Source: an uncultured bacterium (GTDB taxonomy: Bacteria > Bacteroidota > Bacteroidia > CAILMK01). Taken from it: 53,621 nucleotides of DNA. Shown here one piece after another: positions 18,499 through 53,621 of this stretch (its first letter is position 1; each line of letters begins with the position of its first letter). The position numbers and the translations under genes are program-made. A model generated the notes under the pieces. The model did no database searches. It was not told the DNA's origin and saw only the letters and a list, made by a program, of their open reading frames with translations. The stretch lies in assembly GCA_903829945.1 (NCBI GenBank), contig CAIKRV010000082.1, positions 1 to 53,621 of the forward strand. Direction: 5' to 3'.

Positions 18499-19881
18499 AT
18501 GAAATTCTCTATTACACGCTGCCTATTGTTTATATTTCTTTTTGGAAATTCTTTTTTAATTTCTGCACAGACTTGGAACTCTTTGGGTTCTATGGATGCT
18601 TCCGTCAATGCATTGTGCATCAATCCGGGTGCTGATACCCTATTTGTGGGCGGTGGCTTTATGAAGAATGGCAATAAAACCTTGAATTATATTGGAGCAC
18701 TGAATACTTCCAATTGGTACGCAATGGGTATGGACATGGGCTCTGATTATTCCATGATCGGTACCAATGGCAAGGTATTATGTATGCAGCCTTTTCAAGG
18801 CAAACTTTATTTAGGCGGTGATTTTTCTACAGCCGAAAGCTTTGCTGCTTCTCATATTGCCTACTATCAAAATGGAAGTTTTGGTAGTGTAGGGAATGGT
18901 TTCGATAATGTGGTTCGTTGCTTGGCAGTCTATAATGGTGAACTTTATGCCGGTGGCGAATTTAAAAATTCAGGAACTACTGCGCTTTCCCATATTGCAA
19001 AGTGGAATGGTAGCACCTGGGTAGCAGTAGGCGCGGGACTGAATGATGATGTAGAAGCAATGACAGTTTATAACGGTCGTTTAATTGTAGGCGGCGATTT
19101 TGATCAATCCGGAACAACAACTTTAAATCATATTGCGCAGTGGGATGGTTCTAATTGGTCCGCCCTGGGAACCGGTATTACAACCAATAATGCAATGATA
19201 TCCATGGGAATGCCTGCTATGGTTCATTGTTTGCAAGCTTATCATGGGAAATTGTATGCCGGCGGTATGTTTATGTACGCGGATGGTAAAGATGCTACTA
19301 ATTTGGCCGTATGGAATGATACGGCTTGGTCATCCTTAGGGAATGTGGGTACTAAAATGTTGGACGTGGTGGAAAGCATGACGACCTATAATTATAAACT
19401 CATTATCGGTGGTTATTTTGATCAGGTAGGTAGCTTAAGCGCTGCTAATATTGCTGCATGGAATGGTACTACCTGGAGTACCTTAGGAGCAGGGGTGGAT
19501 ACAGCCATTGCCTGCATGGCAGCATATAAAGGAACCTTGGTGATAGGCGGATATTTTAAAAACGTAAATGCTAAACCGATGTCATACCTTGCGCAATGGC
19601 AGGAACCTGCGGGAATCAATCAAAATCATAAAAATGATTTGGCTATTGCAGTATTTCCAAATCCCGGCAGTGATTTTTTTAATATTAGCGGATTGCAAAA
19701 TGAGAAAAATGTAGTGATTAAAATAAATTCATTGGATGGGAAACTCATTTATCAGGAACATGTCGAAAATCCTTCCACGCAAACCAAAATTTTATTAGGA
19801 AAAATTCCAAATGGTATGTACACTTTATATATGGAAAGTGAACAACATTATGCCGTGCAAAAATTAATTATTTTAAATTAA
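18499..19881 (+). CDS. Secreted propeller-like repeat protein with a T9SS C-terminal sorting domain
   Basis: The 460-residue product has a signal peptide ending at ISAQ (about residue 24). Seven repeats of roughly 45-55 residues follow, each with a GG-x-F motif (GGGF, GGDF, GGEF, GGDF, GGMF, GGYF, GGYF) and a YxGxLxxGGxF...IAxWNGxxWxxLG pattern. This suggests a seven-bladed beta-propeller. The last 75 residues are a typical T9SS type A tail (FPNPGSDFFNISGL through ALKLIILN-like AVQKLIILN). The protein should be exported across both membranes and attached to the surface or released. No enzymatic residues are evident. Its stop is 3 bp from the stop of the convergent transsulfuration gene. Confidence 0.88.
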   Translation: MKFSITRCLLFIFLFGNSFLISAQTWNSLGSMDASVNALCINPGADTLFVGGGFMKNGNKTLNYIGALNTSNWYAMGMDMGSDYSMIGTNGKVLCMQPFQGKLYLGGDFSTAESFAASHIAYYQNGSFGSVGNGFDNVVRCLAVYNGELYAGGEFKNSGTTALSHIAKWNGSTWVAVGAGLNDDVEAMTVYNGRLIVGGDFDQSGTTTLNHIAQWDGSNWSALGTGITTNNAMISMGMPAMVHCLQAYHGKLYAGGMFMYADGKDATNLAVWNDTAWSSLGNVGTKMLDVVESMTTYNYKLIIGGYFDQVGSLSAANIAAWNGTTWSTLGAGVDTAIACMAAYKGTLVIGGYFKNVNAKPMSYLAQWQEPAGINQNHKNDLAIAVFPNPGSDFFNISGLQNEKNVVIKINSLDGKLIYQEHVENPSTQTKILLGKIPNGMYTLYMESEQHYAVQKLIILN

Positions 19882-34263: not shown

Positions 34264-35580
34264 ATGGAATTGCAAAAGCTCATTAATATGCGTTGTAGGT
34301 TCCAAAATATTGCCATAATATTTATTGTCGGCTTATCTTTTATTGTTTATTCCAGGCTATCGGCACAGAATAATTCCGTTATTCCTTGCTATACCGACCA
34401 GATGCGAAAAATGCATGGCTTTATTCAGCCGGATCATGAGCCGATGAATAAAACAGAATTTACAATAGAGGATACAGATACCTATTATATTCCTATAGTT
34501 TTTCATATTATTTATACAACTAAAGGTACCGGTGCTGACCAATTAACGGATGCGGATATTCAAAGTCAAATTAAAGTACTTAATGAAGATTACAGCAAAA
34601 TGCCGGGTACGCATGGGTATAATAATTATAATTTTGGAGCAGACACAAAAATTCGTTTTTATTTAGCCACTAAAGACCCTTACGGAAATCCTACGACGGG
34701 CATTGAAAGAATCCAAAATACAACGGACAATATTTCATCTGCCGATGAAATGGCCATTAAAAACTTAAGTCGCTGGAATCAATTGTATTATTTTAATGTC
34801 TGGATTGTTAGCCAGATAGATGGAAGTAATCGAATTGCAGGGTATTCCTACTTGCCGCAAGATGTTGCTACGGCTACCTCTGCACAAGATATAGACGGAA
34901 CCGTTATTAATTACTTATTTGTAGGTAAAAATACCGGTTTGTATAATGATGCCCGCTACCAATTGGCCAGAACTTTAACTCATGAAGCCGGGCATTATTT
35001 CAATTTGCATCACCCATGGGGAGATGAAGATATAAATGTATGCGGCGATGATGGGGTAGATGATACGCCTCCTTGCGAGAATATTTATTTTTCAAATTAT
35101 CCGCCGCCTTATTATTGTGATTCGCCTTTCCAATGCGGCCATTATCGATTGGTAGAGGATTATATGGATTATTCGGACGACAGATGTATGGATGTATTTA
35201 CTAAGGGGCAGAGCAAGAAGATGCGGGCCGCCTTACGTCAGTATCGCCCTAACTTAATCTCTTGCCCCAATAGGGAACGTACAGGGGCTCCTGTAGGTTG
35301 CGGGTTGACTTCAGTTGAAAATACCAATACCATAAATATTGTTCCCAATCCGGCGGATGCTGCGGACATAAATTTTAAATTATTTTTAGACCATGAGCAA
35401 AGCCTTGATTTTTATATATATGACCAATTAGGGAATTTATTACAAGAGCAATTGGGTATTCGAGGGGCCGCAGGAACTTTTACGATGCATTTGCCGGGTT
35501 TGCGTACCGGAATTTATTATGGATTGGTAAAAGGACAAACACAGGTATTCCGAAAAAGGATATTAATTGCTACTCATTAA
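34264..35580 (+). CDS. Secreted M43 (pappalysin-like) zinc metalloprotease with T9SS sorting domain
   Basis: The 438-residue product has a long signal region ending near SRLSAQ. The zinc motif HEAGHYFNLHHPW (HExxHxxxxxH) lies near residue 239, and the Met-turn-like DYMDYSDDRCM is about 60 residues later. This arrangement is typical of M43B metalloproteases. The final 85 residues (NIVPNPADAADINF to FRKRILIATH) form a T9SS type A sorting domain, so the protease is exported to the cell surface or medium. It is predicted to act extracellularly on proteins or peptides. Confidence 0.88.
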   Translation: MELQKLINMRCRFQNIAIIFIVGLSFIVYSRLSAQNNSVIPCYTDQMRKMHGFIQPDHEPMNKTEFTIEDTDTYYIPIVFHIIYTTKGTGADQLTDADIQSQIKVLNEDYSKMPGTHGYNNYNFGADTKIRFYLATKDPYGNPTTGIERIQNTTDNISSADEMAIKNLSRWNQLYYFNVWIVSQIDGSNRIAGYSYLPQDVATATSAQDIDGTVINYLFVGKNTGLYNDARYQLARTLTHEAGHYFNLHHPWGDEDINVCGDDGVDDTPPCENIYFSNYPPPYYCDSPFQCGHYRLVEDYMDYSDDRCMDVFTKGQSKKMRAALRQYRPNLISCPNRERTGAPVGCGLTSVENTNTINIVPNPADAADINFKLFLDHEQSLDFYIYDQLGNLLQEQLGIRGAAGTFTMHLPGLRTGIYYGLVKGQTQVFRKRILIATH

Positions 35581-39353: not shown

Positions 39354-40286
39354 TTACTTTTTCTTTTTGCCTTCTTTGTTTGGCGGCGGAGGAACTGATA
39401 TCAATCCTTTTAGAGTATCATTGAATGTTGGGCTTCCTGTTGTATGAATTTCTGCTTTTGTAAAAGGGCTTTCAATTTGCGCTAAAGTATAATTGCTAGC
39501 TCGCAATGATTTTAATTGATGTATAGCTTCTTGTCTTAATCGTTTCAACCTCTCTTCCTTTTTTATATTCTCTCTTATCATTAAAGCGTTTAAACTTTCA
39601 AGATTAGACATTACTATTAATTCATGTGCATCTGCCAAATCCCTCGGATTTAGTCCCTGCAATGCTTCTTTGGGGTTCTGTTTCTTCCACTCTTGCGCAG
39701 TAAAATTAAAAAGTGCATAATTTAACAACTCTGCTTCGTTATTGTAAATCTGCTTTGACTTTTCGGTAGGGATAATATTTTCAAGTTCTTTCAGTTTGTC
39801 TTTAATAGCATCTGTATGAATTCTATAATTTGCCTTTGCTAAATATCTTCTAAAATCCCATTCAGAACCCAATCGCTTAGATTCTTCCTCTTTAAGTCTT
39901 TGGAACTCTTTAATTAGGTAAAGCTTAAACGTAAGGCTTATCCAAGTCCCAAATTCAAAGGCGATATCTTTATGTGCATAAGTGCCTCCGTATCGTCCTG
40001 CTTTTGCAATTATTCCAATTGCACCTGTTTTTTCCGCCGATTCCTTAACGCTGATTTTAAAAGAGTTAAGCCCAGCCTCACTTTTAATTAAGTCGAATTC
40101 GCCATAATTAAAATGTGAATTGTTAAAACCCTCCCAAACGGATAAAAATTCTAATGTGTTCCTATTCCAATCAGTTACAAAAAAATCTCCGTCTTTTGCT
40201 TTAATCATATCTGTAAGACTGATATAATCTTCGCCATTCTCCTTTAGAATTGAAATATCAATCCCATCAATTGTAATTTTACTCAT
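39354..40286 (-). CDS. KilA-N domain protein (phage-like DNA-binding protein)
   Basis: The 310-residue protein has an N-terminal KilA-N domain at residues 1-115: GEDYISLTDMIKAKDGDFFV, NRNTLEFLSVWEGFNN, and GRYGGTYAHKDIAFEFGTWI (the typical YAHKDIAFEF core). An alpha-helical, coiled-coil-prone region follows, and the C-terminus is basic (NKEGKKKK). KilA-N proteins are common in phages and genomic islands and bind nucleic acids. No phage genes surround it. It sits alone between two core genes with a 340-bp non-coding stretch upstream, suggesting an isolated transferred gene. Confidence 0.88.
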   Translation of the reverse strand: MSKITIDGIDISILKENGEDYISLTDMIKAKDGDFFVTDWNRNTLEFLSVWEGFNNSHFNYGEFDLIKSEAGLNSFKISVKESAEKTGAIGIIAKAGRYGGTYAHKDIAFEFGTWISLTFKLYLIKEFQRLKEEESKRLGSEWDFRRYLAKANYRIHTDAIKDKLKELENIIPTEKSKQIYNNEAELLNYALFNFTAQEWKKQNPKEALQGLNPRDLADAHELIVMSNLESLNALMIRENIKKEERLKRLRQEAIHQLKSLRASNYTLAQIESPFTKAEIHTTGSPTFNDTLKGLISVPPPPNKEGKKKK

Positions 40287-45912: not shown

Positions 45913-48900
45913 ATGAAACATTCAAAATTAAGTTTCCTTGGGATTCTTGCATTTATTTTATGCTACTCTTTTGCAAATGCCCAAACCTTTAAAGGTCAAG
46001 TAAAACAAGGAAGTACAAGTGCTGACAATGCCTCCTCAGTGGCAGTGGATGCCTATGGTAATTCCTACGTAATCGGTTCTTATCAGTCCACCTTGAAATT
46101 TGGTAAAAGTAGTAAAACACTTACCAGTAATGGGGGATATGATATGTACCTGGCCAAATATGATAAATTTGGTAGTTTAATTTGGGTTGCCAGTGCCGGT
46201 GGGCCCTTGGATGATAAAGGTATTGGCTTGACCTTGGATGGCAATGGATATATTTATCTAACCGGTAGTATTCAAAGTACTACCACTTCCACGGGGCCTG
46301 CCGTATTCGGAAGCATCAAAATATATAGTGCGGGTAGTTCGGATTTTTGTTTGGCAAAATGTGATACTTCCGGAAACTTTATTTGGGCCAAATCTGCGGG
46401 CGGTACCGCTGCAGAATATGGAAATGTTGTAAAAGTAGATGTTGCCAATAATTTATTTGTCGTTGGAAATTATAATAGTTCATCCCTAAAAATAGGGACA
46501 CATTCTATTACCAATGCAGGTAGTACTGATGGCTTTATGGCAAAATATGATAGTGCAGGTAAAATCATATGGCTCATCAATGCTGCCTCCGGTACCAATG
46601 AAGAATCAGCTGCCTCACTGGCCATTGATAATGGCAATAACTTATTTGTAACCGGTAGATTTGCCTCTACAGGAACAAAAATTGCAGGTAAATCTTTAAC
46701 TACTAATGGTGTTGCAGATTTCTTTCTGGCCAAATATGATACCTCGGGAACCGGTAAATGGGCTATTGGCGAAGGTGGGAGTGGGGATGATCGCGGATTA
46801 AGCGTGGCCATTTCCGGTACCAGTAATATTGTATATGTGAGCGGTAGTTTTTCAAGTAATTTTACTTGGGCAAGCACTACTTCCATCACTTCTAATGGCG
46901 GAAAAGATATTTTTATTGCTAAATATGATACTGCCGGGTCATTTGGTTGGATAGAAACCTCCGGTAGTTCCAGTGATGACCAAGCGGCATGTATTACTTC
47001 TGATGTTTTTGATAATGCATACATCACAGGAAATTTCCAAAGTGGCGCTTCTGGTACTGCCTTTAATGGGGCAAGTTCTACCAAGAAAACTTTAACGAGT
47101 TCAGGCTCGGATGATATATTCCTCGCTTGTTATCGCTCCAACGGACAAATTTATAGCGCTGTCGAAGCCGGTGGTTCCAGTTCTGATTTAGGTACCGGCG
47201 TGGCCGATAATAGTACCGGTGATGTATGGATCTGCGGTAGTTTCCAAGGTACTTCCAGTTTTGGTTTAGGTTCCTTAACCAGTTATGGTTCTACCGATGG
47301 ATTTGTTGCTCGTTTAAATGATGCCTCTGCTGTTAATCCTCCTTTATTTTATTCCCGAAGCTTATCTTTTTGTTCCGGGGATTCGGCTATTTTATACACG
47401 ATTAATAATTCAAGTTATAATTATCAATGGTATAATGGCTCTACTGCTATAAGCGGTGCCACTAATTATAATTATATCGCTAAAACCGCAGGTACCTATA
47501 ATGTTAAAATTACGACCTCCGGCGGTGTATCAGGAACTTCAAGTTCCGGTTTAACCGTTAGCGTGACAACTACACCTACGGCTACTTTTTCTATCGTAAA
47601 AAATCCTGCTTGTGACAGCACCTTAGTTTATACTAAAACTGTTTCAGGTTATACCTATCAATGGAACATGGGTGGGACGGCTATCAGTGGCGCAACGGGA
47701 AGCACTTATTATGTGAAAACTTCCGGAAATTTAACATTGACGGTTACCAATGGCTCTTGCAGTGCTACCTCTTCCAGTCTAAGTGTAACCGTCAGTCCTA
47801 CGCCAAAAGCTAGCATTACTCATATTGGATCTTTACATCAATGTAATGGAGATAGTGTGTTATTACATGCCTTCCCTCAATCTAGTGGCAATACCTACCA
47901 ATGGTATATTAATTCTACCGCAGTTAAAAGTGGAACGGACTCTACTTTTTATGCCTCAAAATTACATACTAATTCCTATACCGTAAAAGTTACTACTTCT
48001 GCAGGTTGTTATAATACTTCCTCGGCGGTATCTGTAGATATTGATTCGGCTTTATTTAATAGAACCGGTCCTGCCAAATCCATTTGTGTAGGAACATCAG
48101 CTGTTTTAGGTTACAATAAAATAAATACCTATAAATACGCCTGGACTTCTAAACCAAGTGGCATGACTTCCTCTCAGGCAAGACCCTTGGTTACTCCGGT
48201 AACCACTACCACTTATTATTTAACGGTGACGGATACCACCATCAACTGTTCCCGATCTGATTCTGTAGTTTATACCGTGCTGCCGATCCCTAAGCCAAAT
48301 ATTATTGCTAATACGACTATTTGTAGCGGCGATAGCATCTCCATCGGCGGAACGGCCAATAAAAATGAATATTATTCTTGGACTTCCAGTCCAACTGGAT
48401 TTACTTCAACTTCTTCTAATCCTAAAGTGGCGCCTACCACCACCACAACTTATAAACTTGCTGATAGTAGTTCCATCACCGGATGTATAACCAAAAAGAA
48501 TATTTTAATTACTGTTAATTCCAGACCTTCTGCGCCAATTTTAACAGCAAATACCCCATTCTGTGCCGGCGGAACTTTAAAATTAACTGCTCCTACCGTT
48601 TCAGGTGCTACCTATAAATGGACAGGTCCTGACACCTTCAGCAGATCCAAACAAAATCCGCAAAGATTATTAACTACGCTTGCCGATTCCGGAGTATATA
48701 AATGCGTAGTTACCGTTAGTGGTTGCTCGGATTCCAGTACTATTACTGCTACTATTAATCCTTTACCATTAGCATCTCATATTGCAAGTACCACTATTTG
48801 CTCGGGGTCCAGTATAAGTATTGGAGCAAGTTCCATTAGTGGCCATACGTATTCTTGGACGTCTAATCCTTCCGGTTATACTTCTTCCAGTAGCAATCCT

Positions 48901-51900
48901 AGTGTGAGCCCTACCAGTGCAACTACTTATAAACTCACTGAAACCGTAACTTCCAGCGGTTGCTCAAAAACGGATTCATTAACCATTAGCGTGAGTGCGA
49001 CGCCATCTGCACCTACTGCTTCAAGTAATTCTGCGATATGTGCGGGAAAAACATTAAATTTATATGCCAGTAAAATTACCGGTGCTACCTATAGCTGGAC
49101 CGGTCCCAATAGTTTTACTTCTTCTATAGAAAATCCTTCCATCACCGGCGCTACTACTGCTGCCACGGGTACTTATTATGTAACGGCTACGGTTGGTACT
49201 TGTACCAGCTCCAGTAGCAGCACTAGCGTTACCATCAATCCGCCTCCGGTGCCGGTACCCGGCACGGCAACCACCATTTGTGCCGGTTCTTCTACCACCA
49301 TTGGTGGTACTGCTACCACTGGTCATACTTATGCTTGGTATAGCAAGCCTTCCGGATTTTCTTCAAGTAGTAGCAGTCCGACAGTTAGTCCTAAAGTAAG
49401 TACTACTTATTATGTTCAGGAAACGATAACAGCGACCGGCTGCGTAGCAGCCGACTCCGTAAGAATAACAGTTAACCCGCAGCCTAGTGCTACCGTTGGA
49501 AGCGCAACCAGTATCTGTGCCGGACAATCCGTAACGCTTGGTGCTTCCGCGGTTACTGGTAACACCTATAGTTGGACATCCACGCCTAGTGGATTTACTT
49601 CAACCTCTTCCAATCCAAGTGTATCGCCTACCACCACCACCACTTATAAACTTACTGAAACGATAACAGCCACCGGATGTTCTAAAACTGATTCGGTAAC
49701 CATCACCGTTAATCCGCTACCTAGTGCCACGGTGACAATTGCTACCACGATATGTGCGGGCACATCAGTTAAAATAGGGTCAAGTAGTGTGAGTGGTCAT
49801 ACGTACAGCTGGACTTCCAATCCTTCCGGATATACTTCAAGTTCCAGTAATCCTTCCGTTACACCGAGTACCACCACCACTTATATTTTAAAAGAAACAA
49901 TAACAACTACCGGTTGTGCTAAAACGGATTCTGTTACTATTACAGTAAATCCATTGCCAACTGCCAGCGTAGGTAGTGCAACTTCAATTTGTAAAAATTC
50001 TTCCACAACTATTGGGGCAACTGCTATTTCAGGGCATACCTACAGCTGGACATCCAATCCGAGCGGATTTACCTCAACTACTAGCAATCCAAGTGTATCT
50101 CCGAGTGTGACTACAACTTATAAATTAACGGAAACAATTACTGCCAGCGGTTGTTTTAAAACGGATTCCGTAAAAATAACAGTTAATCCTTTACCTACGG
50201 TTAATGTAGGTAGTCCAAAAACAATTTGTAATGCTTCTTCTACTACTATCGGGGCAAGCTCCGTAAGTGGTTATAGCTATAGTTGGACTTCTAATCCGAG
50301 TGGGTTTACTTCTACTACAAGTAACCCTAGTGTGAGTCCGTCCACGACAACCATGTATAGACTCACAGTGACCAATAATACCAGTTTATGTGCAGCCACA
50401 GATTCTGTAAAAGTTACCGTCAATCCTCAGCCAAGTGTCAGTGCAGGTACTTCCAGTAGCATTTGCAAAGGAAATAGTATTACCATTGGGGCAAGTGCAG
50501 TTTCAGGACATACCTATAGCTGGAGTTCTAATCCAAGCGGTTTCAGTTCAAGCTCCAGTAATCCTAGTGTTTCTCCTACGGTAACCACCAAGTATAAAGT
50601 TACTGAAACCATCACTGCAACGGGTTGTTCAAAAAGTGATTCAGTGACCATCACCGTAAATCCACTTCCTGCTGCCAGTGTAGGTAGTGCGAGCAGTGTT
50701 TGTTACGGATCTTCCACCACTATAGGGGCCAGCGCCATCAGTGGCAATACTTACAGTTGGACATCTCATCCTAGCGGATTTACTTCCGGTAGCAGCAATC
50801 CAAGCGTAAGCCCTACAGTGGCTACGGAATATATCCTAACGGAAACTATTACTGCTACCGGTTGTACTAAAACTGACTCTGTAAAAATATCTGTCAATCC
50901 ATTACCGTTAAATAATGCTGGTACTAACCAAAGCATTTGTTCCGGAACCAGTACTAAAATAGGTGCTAGTGCTACCTTAGGTCATACCTATGCTTGGAGC
51001 TCAAATCCAAGCGGATTTACTTCTACAAGTAGTAATCCGAGTGTCAGTCCAACTTCAAGCACTACTTATTATTTAACTGAAACTATAACTGCTACAACAT
51101 GTAGTAAATTAGATAGTGTTGTTATTACTGTTAATCCGACACCATCTAATCCAACCTTATCTAATAATGGTCCGCTTTGCGTTGGTCAAACCTTAAATTT
51201 AAGCGCTTCCACGATTAGTGGAGCTTCATATTCCTGGACCGGACCTGCTTCCTTTAGTTCAAGCAGTCAAAACCCTAGCAGATCTTCAGTTGTTTTAGGA
51301 GATAGCGGGGTGTATTCTTGTACCGGTATTTTAGGTACTTGTTCCAGTGCTGTAGTGACTACTACCGTAAAAATAAATGCATTGCCAACACCTTCTGTTT
51401 CCGGTTTATCTACGGTTTGTGCATTATCTACCAGTGGATATGCTACTACGCATCATGCCGGTAGTACCTATGCTTGGACCATCAACGGCGGAACCATTAA
51501 AACCGGTGCAGGAACAAATAGCATTACAGTGCAATGGGATACCCTTAGTAGCGGTACTGTGATGGTAAAAGAAACCAATGCATCTTCCTGTCAGGATAGT
51601 AACACCTTGAGTGTAACAATTGACCCGCTACCTAAAGCAAGCATCGTTAATAGCCAAACTATTTGCTCAGGACAAAAGGTATTTCTTGGAGGTTCTGCTA
51701 CCACAGGGGATACTTATAGCTGGACTTCCAAGCCAAGTGGATTTAGTTCTACCTCTTCCAATCCATCGGTTACTCCTAGTTCAGGCATCACTTATTATTT
51801 AACTGAAACGATTACGGCAACAGGTTGTGCGAAATCCGATTCTACAGTGATTACCATCGGACCTAAAGCGTCTGCACCTGTAGTATCAAATAATGGTCCG

Positions 51901-53621
51901 TTATGTGTAGGTCAAACCATGAAATTAACGGCCAGTAATATTTCCGGCGCTACCTATGCTTGGTCAGGTCCGGGTACTTATTCTTCTTCCTCTCAAAATC
52001 CGACCAAATCATCGGTTAGTTTATCAGATACCGGAACTTATACCGTAGTTGCAACGATTGGATCATGTGTTTCGAATGCTGCTTCTACTAAATTGGTAAT
52101 AAATCCATTGCCTACACCGGCAGTAAGTGGTAAAACCAGCGTTTGTGCGTTGACCACCCAATCCTATTCAACAACTTCAAATACCGGAAGTACTTATACT
52201 TGGAAAATTAGCGGCGGTACGATTGTGAGTGGTGCCGGTACGGCTTCCATTTCTGTACTTTGGGGAAGTGCAGGCAGCGGCAGTGTAAAGGTGATTGAAA
52301 CCAATGCATCTTCTTGCGCTGATTCTTCAAGCACTGCAATAACCATTAATGCATTGCCAACGGCAAGTATTAGCGGCTCCAGTTCCGTTTGCGCCGGTTC
52401 TAATCAAACATATTTATCCGGCTCTACCACCAATTCTTATGCATGGAGCGTAAGCGGAGGTTCTATTTCTTCCGGTGCATCTTCTCATAAAATGATCATG
52501 TCATGGGGTAGTGCAGGCAGCGGTTCCGTTCAATTAATCGAAACCAATAGCAATGGTTGTGTCGATACCACAACCACAAGCATTACCATTAAAGTTACGC
52601 CTACTGCCACAGTGATTTCTAATACGAGCATTTGTAAAGGTAGTTCCATAAACATTGGTAGTACTGCTACCACCGGTGATACTTATAGTTGGAGCAGCAA
52701 TCCTAGCGGATATAGCTCTTCCTCCAGCAATCCTTCCGTGGCACCGAGCACAACTACCACTTATTATTTAACTGAAACAAATACTTCAAGCACTTGTCAA
52801 AAAGCGGATAGCGTTACCATAACGGTTAATCCTTTACCTGCGGCTTCACATATCGCTTCTACTGCTATTTGTAATGGAAATTCCATCAGTATCGGTGCGG
52901 CAAGTGTAACGGGCAGTACGTATAGCTGGACTTCCAAACCTAGCGGATATACTTCTACGAGCAGCAATCCAAGTGTTAGTCCGACTGCAACTACAGTGTA
53001 TTATATTACTGAAACAACTACTGCTACGGGTTGTAATAAATCCGATAGCGTAACGATTACAGTGAATCCTTTACCTGCAGCTTCGCATATCACTTCTACT
53101 GCTATTTGTAATGGAAATTCCATCAGTATCGGTGCGGCAAGTGTAACAGGAAGTACGTATAGTTGGACATCCAAACCTAGCGGATACACTTCTACGAGCA
53201 GCAATCCAAGTGTTAGTCCGAGTGCAACGACAGTTTATTATGTTACCGAAACCATCACTGCTACGGGTTGTAATAAATCCGATAGTGTAACGATTACCGT
53301 TAATCCTTTACCTGCAGCTTCGCATATCACTTCTACCGCTATTTGTAATGGTAGTTCCATCAGTATCGGTGCGGCAAGTGTTACGGGCAGTACTTATAGC
53401 TGGACTTCCAAACCTAGCGGATATACTTCTACGAGCAGCAATCCAAGTGTTAGTCCGAGTGCAACGACAGTTTATTATATTACTGAAACAACTACAGCTA
53501 CGGGTTGTAATAAATCCGATAGCGTAACGATTACGGTGAATCCTTTACCTGCAGCTTCGCATATCACTTCAACTGCCATTTGTAATGGTAGTTCTATCAG
53601 TATCGGCGCGGCAAGTGTAAC
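45913..53621 (+). CDS. Giant secreted SBBP/Ig-like repeat protein (partial, 3' end beyond window)
   Basis: The frame is open from the ATG at 45913 to the window end, at least 2,569 residues. Residues 1-24 are a signal peptide ending at SFANAQ. Residues about 30-470 hold about seven SBBP-type repeats (DxFLAKYDxxGxxxWxxxxGG with DDxAxxIAxDxxGNxYVTGxF patterns). From about residue 485 on there are about 26 complete Ig/PKD-like modules of about 79 residues, recurring as ICxGxSxxIGASxxSGxTYSWTSNPSGFTS. They end in 237-bp near-identical tandem repeats. It is probably a T9SS-exported surface adhesin or filament-like protein. The sorting domain must lie beyond the window. It could be related in style to gliding adhesins, but I see no specific homology. 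Confidence 0.85.
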   Translation, partial: MKHSKLSFLGILAFILCYSFANAQTFKGQVKQGSTSADNASSVAVDAYGNSYVIGSYQSTLKFGKSSKTLTSNGGYDMYLAKYDKFGSLIWVASAGGPLDDKGIGLTLDGNGYIYLTGSIQSTTTSTGPAVFGSIKIYSAGSSDFCLAKCDTSGNFIWAKSAGGTAAEYGNVVKVDVANNLFVVGNYNSSSLKIGTHSITNAGSTDGFMAKYDSAGKIIWLINAASGTNEESAASLAIDNGNNLFVTGRFASTGTKIAGKSLTTNGVADFFLAKYDTSGTGKWAIGEGGSGDDRGLSVAISGTSNIVYVSGSFSSNFTWASTTSITSNGGKDIFIAKYDTAGSFGWIETSGSSSDDQAACITSDVFDNAYITGNFQSGASGTAFNGASSTKKTLTSSGSDDIFLACYRSNGQIYSAVEAGGSSSDLGTGVADNSTGDVWICGSFQGTSSFGLGSLTSYGSTDGFVARLNDASAVNPPLFYSRSLSFCSGDSAILYTINNSSYNYQWYNGSTAISGATNYNYIAKTAGTYNVKITTSGGVSGTSSSGLTVSVTTTPTATFSIVKNPACDSTLVYTKTVSGYTYQWNMGGTAISGATGSTYYVKTSGNLTLTVTNGSCSATSSSLSVTVSPTPKASITHIGSLHQCNGDSVLLHAFPQSSGNTYQWYINSTAVKSGTDSTFYASKLHTNSYTVKVTTSAGCYNTSSAVSVDIDSALFNRTGPAKSICVGTSAVLGYNKINTYKYAWTSKPSGMTSSQARPLVTPVTTTTYYLTVTDTTINCSRSDSVVYTVLPIPKPNIIANTTICSGDSISIGGTANKNEYYSWTSSPTGFTSTSSNPKVAPTTTTTYKLADSSSITGCITKKNILITVNSRPSAPILTANTPFCAGGTLKLTAPTVSGATYKWTGPDTFSRSKQNPQRLLTTLADSGVYKCVVTVSGCSDSSTITATINPLPLASHIASTTICSGSSISIGASSISGHTYSWTSNPSGYTSSSSNPSVSPTSATTYKLTETVTSSGCSKTDSLTISVSATPSAPTASSNSAICAGKTLNLYASKITGATYSWTGPNSFTSSIENPSITGATTAATGTYYVTATVGTCTSSSSSTSVTINPPPVPVPGTATTICAGSSTTIGGTATTGHTYAWYSKPSGFSSSSSSPTVSPKVSTTYYVQETITATGCVAADSVRITVNPQPSATVGSATSICAGQSVTLGASAVTGNTYSWTSTPSGFTSTSSNPSVSPTTTTTYKLTETITATGCSKTDSVTITVNPLPSATVTIATTICAGTSVKIGSSSVSGHTYSWTSNPSGYTSSSSNPSVTPSTTTTYILKETITTTGCAKTDSVTITVNPLPTASVGSATSICKNSSTTIGATAISGHTYSWTSNPSGFTSTTSNPSVSPSVTTTYKLTETITASGCFKTDSVKITVNPLPTVNVGSPKTICNASSTTIGASSVSGYSYSWTSNPSGFTSTTSNPSVSPSTTTMYRLTVTNNTSLCAATDSVKVTVNPQPSVSAGTSSSICKGNSITIGASAVSGHTYSWSSNPSGFSSSSSNPSVSPTVTTKYKVTETITATGCSKSDSVTITVNPLPAASVGSASSVCYGSSTTIGASAISGNTYSWTSHPSGFTSGSSNPSVSPTVATEYILTETITATGCTKTDSVKISVNPLPLNNAGTNQSICSGTSTKIGASATLGHTYAWSSNPSGFTSTSSNPSVSPTSSTTYYLTETITATTCSKLDSVVITVNPTPSNPTLSNNGPLCVGQTLNLSASTISGASYSWTGPASFSSSSQNPSRSSVVLGDSGVYSCTGILGTCSSAVVTTTVKINALPTPSVSGLSTVCALSTSGYATTHHAGSTYAWTINGGTIKTGAGTNSITVQWDTLSSGTVMVKETNASSCQDSNTLSVTIDPLPKASIVNSQTICSGQKVFLGGSATTGDTYSWTSKPSGFSSTSSNPSVTPSSGITYYLTETITATGCAKSDSTVITIGPKASAPVVSNNGPLCVGQTMKLTASNISGATYAWSGPGTYSSSSQNPTKSSVSLSDTGTYTVVATIGSCVSNAASTKLVINPLPTPAVSGKTSVCALTTQSYSTTSNTGSTYTWKISGGTIVSGAGTASISVLWGSAGSGSVKVIETNASSCADSSSTAITINALPTASISGSSSVCAGSNQTYLSGSTTNSYAWSVSGGSISSGASSHKMIMSWGSAGSGSVQLIETNSNGCVDTTTTSITIKVTPTATVISNTSICKGSSINIGSTATTGDTYSWSSNPSGYSSSSSNPSVAPSTTTTYYLTETNTSSTCQKADSVTITVNPLPAASHIASTAICNGNSISIGAASVTGSTYSWTSKPSGYTSTSSNPSVSPTATTVYYITETTTATGCNKSDSVTITVNPLPAASHITSTAICNGNSISIGAASVTGSTYSWTSKPSGYTSTSSNPSVSPSATTVYYVTETITATGCNKSDSVTITVNPLPAASHITSTAICNGSSISIGAASVTGSTYSWTSKPSGYTSTSSNPSVSPSATTVYYITETTTATGCNKSDSVTITVNPLPAASHITSTAICNGSSISIGAASV
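52834..53621 (+). repeat. 237-bp tandem repeats (79 residues each), 3.3 copies to the window end
   Basis: Copies start at 52834, 53071, 53308 and 53545, with an exact 237-bp step. The first three are nearly identical in DNA, including long blocks without change, such as the segment encoding CNG(N/S)SISIGAASVTGSTYSW. The fourth is cut by the window edge, so the array continues. Earlier modules of the same protein have diverged much more, which points to recent amplification or gene conversion in this part. Confidence 0.9.

What the first reader, a model, noticed from the sequence alone, without database searches (positions are those of the whole stretch)
45913..53621. Giant surface protein with SBBP propeller and about 26 Ig-like modules
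More than 2,569 residues are encoded in one uninterrupted frame ending at the window edge. The layout (signal, about seven SBBP repeats, then a long row of 79-residue modules) is that of a rod-like adhesin with a globular head. I expect a T9SS sorting domain beyond the window. The size, the mixed module types and the recent amplification make it a good candidate for an undescribed surface structure.
Basis: partly seen in the sequence, partly recalled or inferred. Interest (0 to 1): 0.6.

Follow-up and report, generated by a model that had tools for sequence, protein, structure and literature searches.

The report
Giant stapled-rod surface protein with propeller
A Bacteroidota genome encodes a very long secreted rod of at least 36 immunoglobulin-like beads carrying a propeller-shaped head; the protein type is known, but its cysteines suggest that neighbouring beads are stapled to each other by disulfide bonds, an easily tested idea about how such bacterial rods are stiffened.

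Summary
An uninterrupted frame (45913-53619, 2,569 aa) has a signal peptide, a seven-bladed SBBP-type propeller and 26 full Ig-like modules, and runs off the contig. Its missing end is on another contig of the same genome (C70), the only one carrying the same repeat subfamily (89-94% DNA identity): six more Ig_7, two PKD_6 and two PKD modules, then a T9SS type-A sorting domain. The protein is at least 3,514 aa. Three other genes in the genome have the same stalk and C-terminal cassette, two of them with protease heads. A gap-free propeller-array-tail protein exists in another genome, so the architecture is of a known kind. The modules' closest solved relative is GhpA, the Aureispira grappling hook, but this similarity belongs to the module family, not to this protein in particular.

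The new element is the cysteine pattern. Most modules have two Cys. They do not co-vary within a module, but the first Cys of module n co-varies almost perfectly with the second Cys of module n+1. Array ends carry only the Cys this predicts. I infer a ladder of inter-module disulfides stiffening a surface rod that presents the propeller. The bonds and the adhesive function are untested.

The parts
45913..45984 (+). Signal peptide (residues 1-24), predicted SPase I site ANA-Q
   Evidence: sequence by eye; no signal-peptide program available
45985..47334 (+). SBBP-type seven-bladed beta-propeller head (residues 25-474)
   Evidence: PF06739 22.0 bits against cut-off 20.5, NF047494 partial, AF2 pLDDT 82.4 pTM 0.88, CylK propeller best in PDB by sequence and fold
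47335..53541 (+). Array of 26 full Ig-like modules (residues 475-2543), mostly Ig_7, three PKD_6-like
   Evidence: AF2 of three modules pLDDT 97.4
47335..47568 (+). First module of the array: carries Cys C1 only, no C2, as the inter-module ladder predicts
51379..51624 (+). PKD_6-like module (residues 1823-1904)
52105..52593 (+). Two PKD_6-like modules (residues 2065-2227)
52831..53619 (+). Amplified module subfamily: three full modules plus 26 residues of a fourth, continuing on contig C70 (L009:3-1448)
   Evidence: 237-bp tandem repeat; 87-96% DNA identity, pS 0.28, pN 0.024

Best explanation
It is a giant cell-surface protein of the T9SS type-A cargo kind. The Sec signal sends it to the periplasm, the C-terminal sorting domain (on contig C70) takes it through the T9SS to the surface, and a stalk of at least 36 Ig-like/PKD modules (roughly 0.1 micrometre if extended; inferred) holds the N-terminal seven-bladed propeller away from the cell, where it probably binds a partner or surface. 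Neighbouring modules are stapled: Cys C1 (position 14) of module n forms a disulfide with Cys C2 (position 68) of module n+1, giving a continuous covalent ladder that stiffens the rod without calcium. Shown: frame, modules, propeller fold (predicted), sorting domain, C1(n)/C2(n+1) co-variation, end pattern. Inferred: the contig join, disulfide formation, surface exposure, rod stiffness, ligand binding by the head.
For: Frame and modules. C70 is the only other contig with this repeat subfamily, 89-94% against at most 69% in any other gene; its ORF ends in TIGR04183 (37.6 bits, cut-off 23). Translocon SprA present (2,361 bits). A gap-free 2,449-aa protein with propeller, array and sorting tail in another genome (L172). 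Ladder: in 413 modules C1 and C2 are not associated within a module (334/43/30/6, p 0.41), while C1(n)-C2(n+1) gives 247 both, 19 neither, 4 discordant (p 6e-25). Phi is 0.71 at offset +1 against -0.04 at 0 and at most 0.45 elsewhere. Permutation: 6 discordant junctions observed, shuffled mean 17.9, minimum 9 in 2,000; joint losses in nine genomes. Hold-out loci: 169 both, 1 discordant at +1, while 24 of 258 modules are single-Cys. Ends: first module C1-only (P0001; L179); last PKD C2-only in P0002, P0003, P0004, P0005 and the type-B protein L179. Method control: an extra Cys pair in L173 co-varies within its module (10/11/1/1) and not at +1.
Against: No coordinates were available, so SG-SG distances in the AF2 model could not be measured. 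Four to six discordant junctions remain in the strict sets, and 22 (17 C2-only, 5 C1-only) when loosely scored modules are included. The hold-out set has no jointly Cys-free junction at the strict score, so it supports the ladder only through where single-Cys modules sit, and four of its loci are close homologues. No DsbB or VKOR was found, and the only DsbA-family hit lacks a signal peptide, so the oxidant is unknown. The first CARDB-like domain of P0003 also carries a C1-like Cys where no Ig module follows. The C82-C70 join rests on repeat identity. No binding or surface data exist.
Confidence: 0.72

Rival explanations
1. The two conserved Cys of each module bond with each other inside the module, as in ordinary Ig domains, and the n/n+1 correlation is a by-product of module shuffling.
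For: Most modules have exactly two Cys (331 of 413); intramolecular Ig disulfides are common in general.
Against: No within-module association (p 0.41; phi -0.04); single-Cys modules sit at array ends; joint losses at a junction in nine genomes. C1 lies at the end of the first strand and C2 at the turn before the last strand (strand positions), which in an Ig fold are opposite ends of the domain (inference from fold topology).
Confidence: 0.08
2. The C1(n)-C2(n+1) bonds are formed in trans between parallel copies of the protein, cross-linking a multi-stranded rope like the GhpA heptamer.
For: Covariation cannot tell cis from trans. The module family builds a heptameric rope in GhpA (PMC13319060, citing Lien et al. 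2024); fold match over all three modules to all eight GhpA fragments.
Against: The similarity to GhpA is shared by the protease-headed sister P0005, so it says nothing about oligomers here. The modules meet end to end at each junction in a single chain, which is enough for a cis bond.
Confidence: 0.12
3. The protein is an enzyme or enzyme-display scaffold rather than an adhesin: the propeller is catalytic or a nutrient-capture head, as its stalk sisters carry proteases.
For: Same stalk and cassette on S8 and M4 peptidase heads; best structural match of the head is the CylK propeller, part of an enzyme.
Against: Propeller identity to CylK is only about 25%; no catalytic residues were tested; SBBP-type propellers occur in 38 of 40 relatives in many contexts.
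Confidence: 0.3
4. C82 and C70 are parts of two different genes and the window protein ends otherwise.
For: No terminal overlap between the contigs; a gap of unknown size.
Against: No other contig end carries this repeat subfamily in a genome scored 99.99% complete; frame and module register continue; a gap-free homologue has the same order.
Confidence: 0.05

Closest known systems
GhpA, grappling hook protein A of Aureispira sp. CCB-QB1 (PDB 9flp and seven more)
   Same: Ig_7-like array; the three-module model matches all eight GhpA fragments over 227-232 of 237 residues (Z 10.5-13.1, 25-31% identity); very large single chain
   Different: Head is an SBBP propeller with no GhpA match. GhpA's Ig-like matches start only near residue 1150. 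Oligomer unknown here. No T6SS TssC model hit in this genome. A protease-headed sister matches GhpA at least as well
Bacteroidota T9SS type-A cargo with Ig_7/PKD stalks
   Same: Signal, Ig_7/PKD array, TIGR04183 tail; the same architecture (with SprB-like modules) complete in L172
   Different: Length, module mixture and the amplified block; no paper describing the inter-module Cys ladder was found in the library searched
CylK-type / SBBP seven-bladed propellers
   Same: Fold and repeat
   Different: About 25% identity; no alkylating enzyme domain
Mobiluncus mulieris giant Ig adhesin (PMC10619420)
   Same: Tens of Ig-like domains with covalent cross-links
   Different: There the cross-links (ester, isopeptide, disulfide) lie inside domains; here the evidence points to bonds between domains

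Membership tests
T9SS type-A cargo | Sec signal peptide | tested here: inconclusive
   Clear by eye (residues 1-24), no prediction program available
T9SS type-A cargo | C-terminal sorting domain TIGR04183/PF18962 | tested here: met
   37.6 bits against cut-off 23 on the C70 part; PF18962 29.9 bits in the genome search, 23.8 in hmmscan, below its cut-off of 27; depends on the C82-C70 join
T9SS type-A cargo | T9SS translocon in the genome | tested here: met
   SprA TIGR04189 2,361 bits; 128 sorting-tail matches
T9SS type-A cargo | Exposure on the cell surface | not testable with these tools
   none
Ig_7 (PF19081) array | Tandem modules over Pfam cut-off | tested here: met
   359.8 bits, 20 stretches
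GhpA grappling hook | Ig_7-like modules of the GhpA type and fold | tested here: met
   not specific
GhpA grappling hook | Similarity to GhpA outside the Ig array (N-terminal region) | tested here: not met
   by sequence the propeller finds CylK only
GhpA grappling hook | Heptameric rope | not testable with these tools
   none
SBBP / CylK-like propeller | Seven four-stranded blades | tested here: met
   seven motifs; AF2 pTM 0.88; TMq 0.74-0.76 to CylK
Ca2+-clamped giant adhesins (SiiE, MpAFP type) | Acidic calcium ligands at module junctions | tested here: not met
   Asp 1.7%, Glu 0.9% of the stalk, too few for several ligands at every junction
SprB gliding adhesin | Type-B (CHU_C) C-terminal domain | tested here: not met
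   type-A tail instead

The most novel reading that the evidence does not exclude
Ig_7/PKD_6/PKD arrays across Bacteroidota, including those related to the GhpA hook, are disulfide-laddered rods: every module is covalently stapled to the next by a C1(n)-C2(n+1) bond, with one-Cys caps at both ends. This would be a general calcium-free way of building stiff extracellular rods that can carry different heads (propeller, subtilisin, thermolysin).
Probability: 0.7. Interest if true: 0.55.

Novelty: new member of a known kind. Interest (0 to 1): 0.42.

Why it matters
Ig_7/PKD arrays are common surface parts of Bacteroidota (Ig_7 in 63 of 198 genomes sampled in the phylum; PKD_6 in 132 of 149 in the class). 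If the modules are stapled in series, this predicts stiffness, redox sensitivity and a defined way to recognise array ends from sequence. It also offers a modular rod for protein display. The claim can be checked at once against maps already deposited for GhpA.

Tried and rejected
An orthologue in relatives that would close the contig gap: none, the best propellers are 32-38% identical. GhpA as a specific relative: rejected, because the M4-protease sister matches it more strongly. Ixotrophy-like predation: no TssC hit. Ca2+ stiffening: rejected on composition. Periplasmic oxidase: no VKOR or DsbB hit, and the DsbA-family hit is FrnE-like without a signal, so the oxidant stays open; disulfides do form in the F. 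johnsoniae envelope (PMC12635249). Distances from the AF2 model: coordinates are not exported. Papers on inter-module disulfides in such arrays: none found in the open-access library; the GhpA paper itself (Lien et al. 2024) is not held, so prior description there cannot be excluded.

Full report
Observation. The frame at 45913-53619 is real and uninterrupted. The window is the whole of contig C82 of a 2.9-Mb, 97-contig genome. The protein starts with a signal peptide, continues with a seven-motif SBBP-type propeller (residues 25-474) and then 26 full Ig-like modules plus 26 residues of another.

The missing end. The last 622 bases match one other contig, C70, at 89-94% over several registers; all other genes reach at most 69% over long stretches. 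C70 opens in frame inside the same repeat subfamily. Its 899-aa frame holds six Ig_7, two PKD_6-like and two PKD_4 modules and a type-A T9SS sorting domain. The contigs share exact stretches of 100-110 bp but do not overlap at their ends, so an unknown number of repeats may be missing. If the two partial modules are one, the protein has 3,514 residues and 37 modules. The join is inferred, strongly, from the uniqueness of the subfamily.

Sister genes. Directly downstream on C70 lies a 2,048-aa protein with a subtilisin (S8) head. On C11 there is a 3,204-aa protein with a thermolysin (M4) head, and on C63 a 2,650-aa fragment whose head is missing. All four share a C-terminal cassette of PKD-like modules plus sorting domain, 33-45% identical over 340-420 aa, while the window's propeller has no similarity to the other heads. 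The stalk is thus a chassis for different heads. The genome has 128 T9SS tail matches and SprA.

Recurrence. Propellers of this kind occur in 38 of 40 relatives. A 2,449-aa protein in another genome of the class has signal, propeller, 22 detected modules and a sorting tail without any gap (L172). The architecture is therefore real and not unique.

Folds. Three modules, modelled with 77 rows from the window and fetched loci, give pLDDT 97.4. The best PDB matches are all eight fragments of GhpA, Z 10.5-13.1 over 227-232 residues. GhpA is a 5,898-residue heptameric filament protein (PMC13319060). The protease-headed sister's stalk matches GhpA still better by sequence (E 1.7e-188 against 6e-160), so this is a family resemblance. 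The propeller model (pTM 0.88) is closest to CylK's propeller.

Cysteine ladder. Nearly every module has Cys near position 14 (C1) and 68 (C2). In 413 modules from 77 proteins, C1 and C2 show no association within a module, but C1 of module n and C2 of module n+1 are present or absent together (247 and 19 against 4 discordant). The association peaks at offset +1 (phi 0.71; -0.04 for the same module) and survives shuffling within proteins. Joint absence occurs in nine genomes. In a hold-out set of other genomes, 1 of 170 junctions is discordant although 24 of 258 modules have one Cys only; those single-Cys modules sit at the ends of runs. A within-module pair in L173 is detected as within-module by the same kind of test. 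At array ends the window protein's first module has C1 only, the last PKD modules of four proteins (paralogous to each other) have C2 only, and an independent type-B protein of the same genome (L179) shows both caps. Residues 133 apart in sequence cannot be in one 79-residue unit, so the pairing is between units. Strand positions put C1 and C2 at opposite ends of the Ig fold, where C1 of one module faces C2 of the next (inference from fold topology; distances could not be measured). Cis and trans bonding cannot be told apart by covariation; cis is simpler.

Evolution of the array. Nine modules (three here, six on C70) form one subfamily with pS 0.28 and pN 0.024, a ratio of 0.09; older modules have pS 0.70 and pN 0.30. 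The block was amplified from one founder and has since been held by purifying selection, so 'recent' is relative. 25 of 36 modules of this gene have their nearest relative in the same gene, consistent with duplication within the gene.

Verdict. The finding is genuine. As an object it is a new member of a known kind: a T9SS-exported, Ig_7-stalked giant surface protein. The part a specialist may not expect is the inter-module disulfide ladder, which I rate likely and which can be checked against deposited maps. Adhesion is the usual guess for such a protein and remains untested; sister genes show that the same rod also displays enzymes.

Noticed in passing
L009:2948-9094 (contig C70): 2,048-aa protein with S8 peptidase head, a beta-helix-like middle, Ig_7/PKD stalk and T9SS tail directly downstream of the window gene's C-terminal part.
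   Followed up: partly
L011:6426-16040 (contig C11, minus strand): 3,204-aa thermolysin-headed protein with Ig_7 stalk and T9SS tail.
   Followed up: partly
L173 (G018:C6), residues 1230-2110 of the frame: An additional Cys pair (CNGxCNG ... LCAG) co-varies within each repeat module, unlike the C1/C2 pair.
   Followed up: partly
G000:C77 near 21529 and C78 near 13282 and 91715: Further giant open frames (5,299, 4,319 and 4,071 aa) carrying sorting-tail or Ig_7 matches in the same genome.
   Followed up: no
window 39354-40286 (-): KilA-N domain protein (62.7 bits), a domain often found in phages and large DNA viruses, among housekeeping genes.
   Followed up: no
window 34264-35580 (+) and 18499-19881 (+): M43 (pappalysin-type) peptidase with a weak sorting tail, and another propeller protein with a clear T9SS tail.
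   Followed up: no
L171:1480-2187 (contig C69): The only DSBA-family hit of the genome lacks a signal peptide (FrnE-like); no DsbB or VKOR was found although many exported proteins carry conserved Cys.
   Followed up: partly
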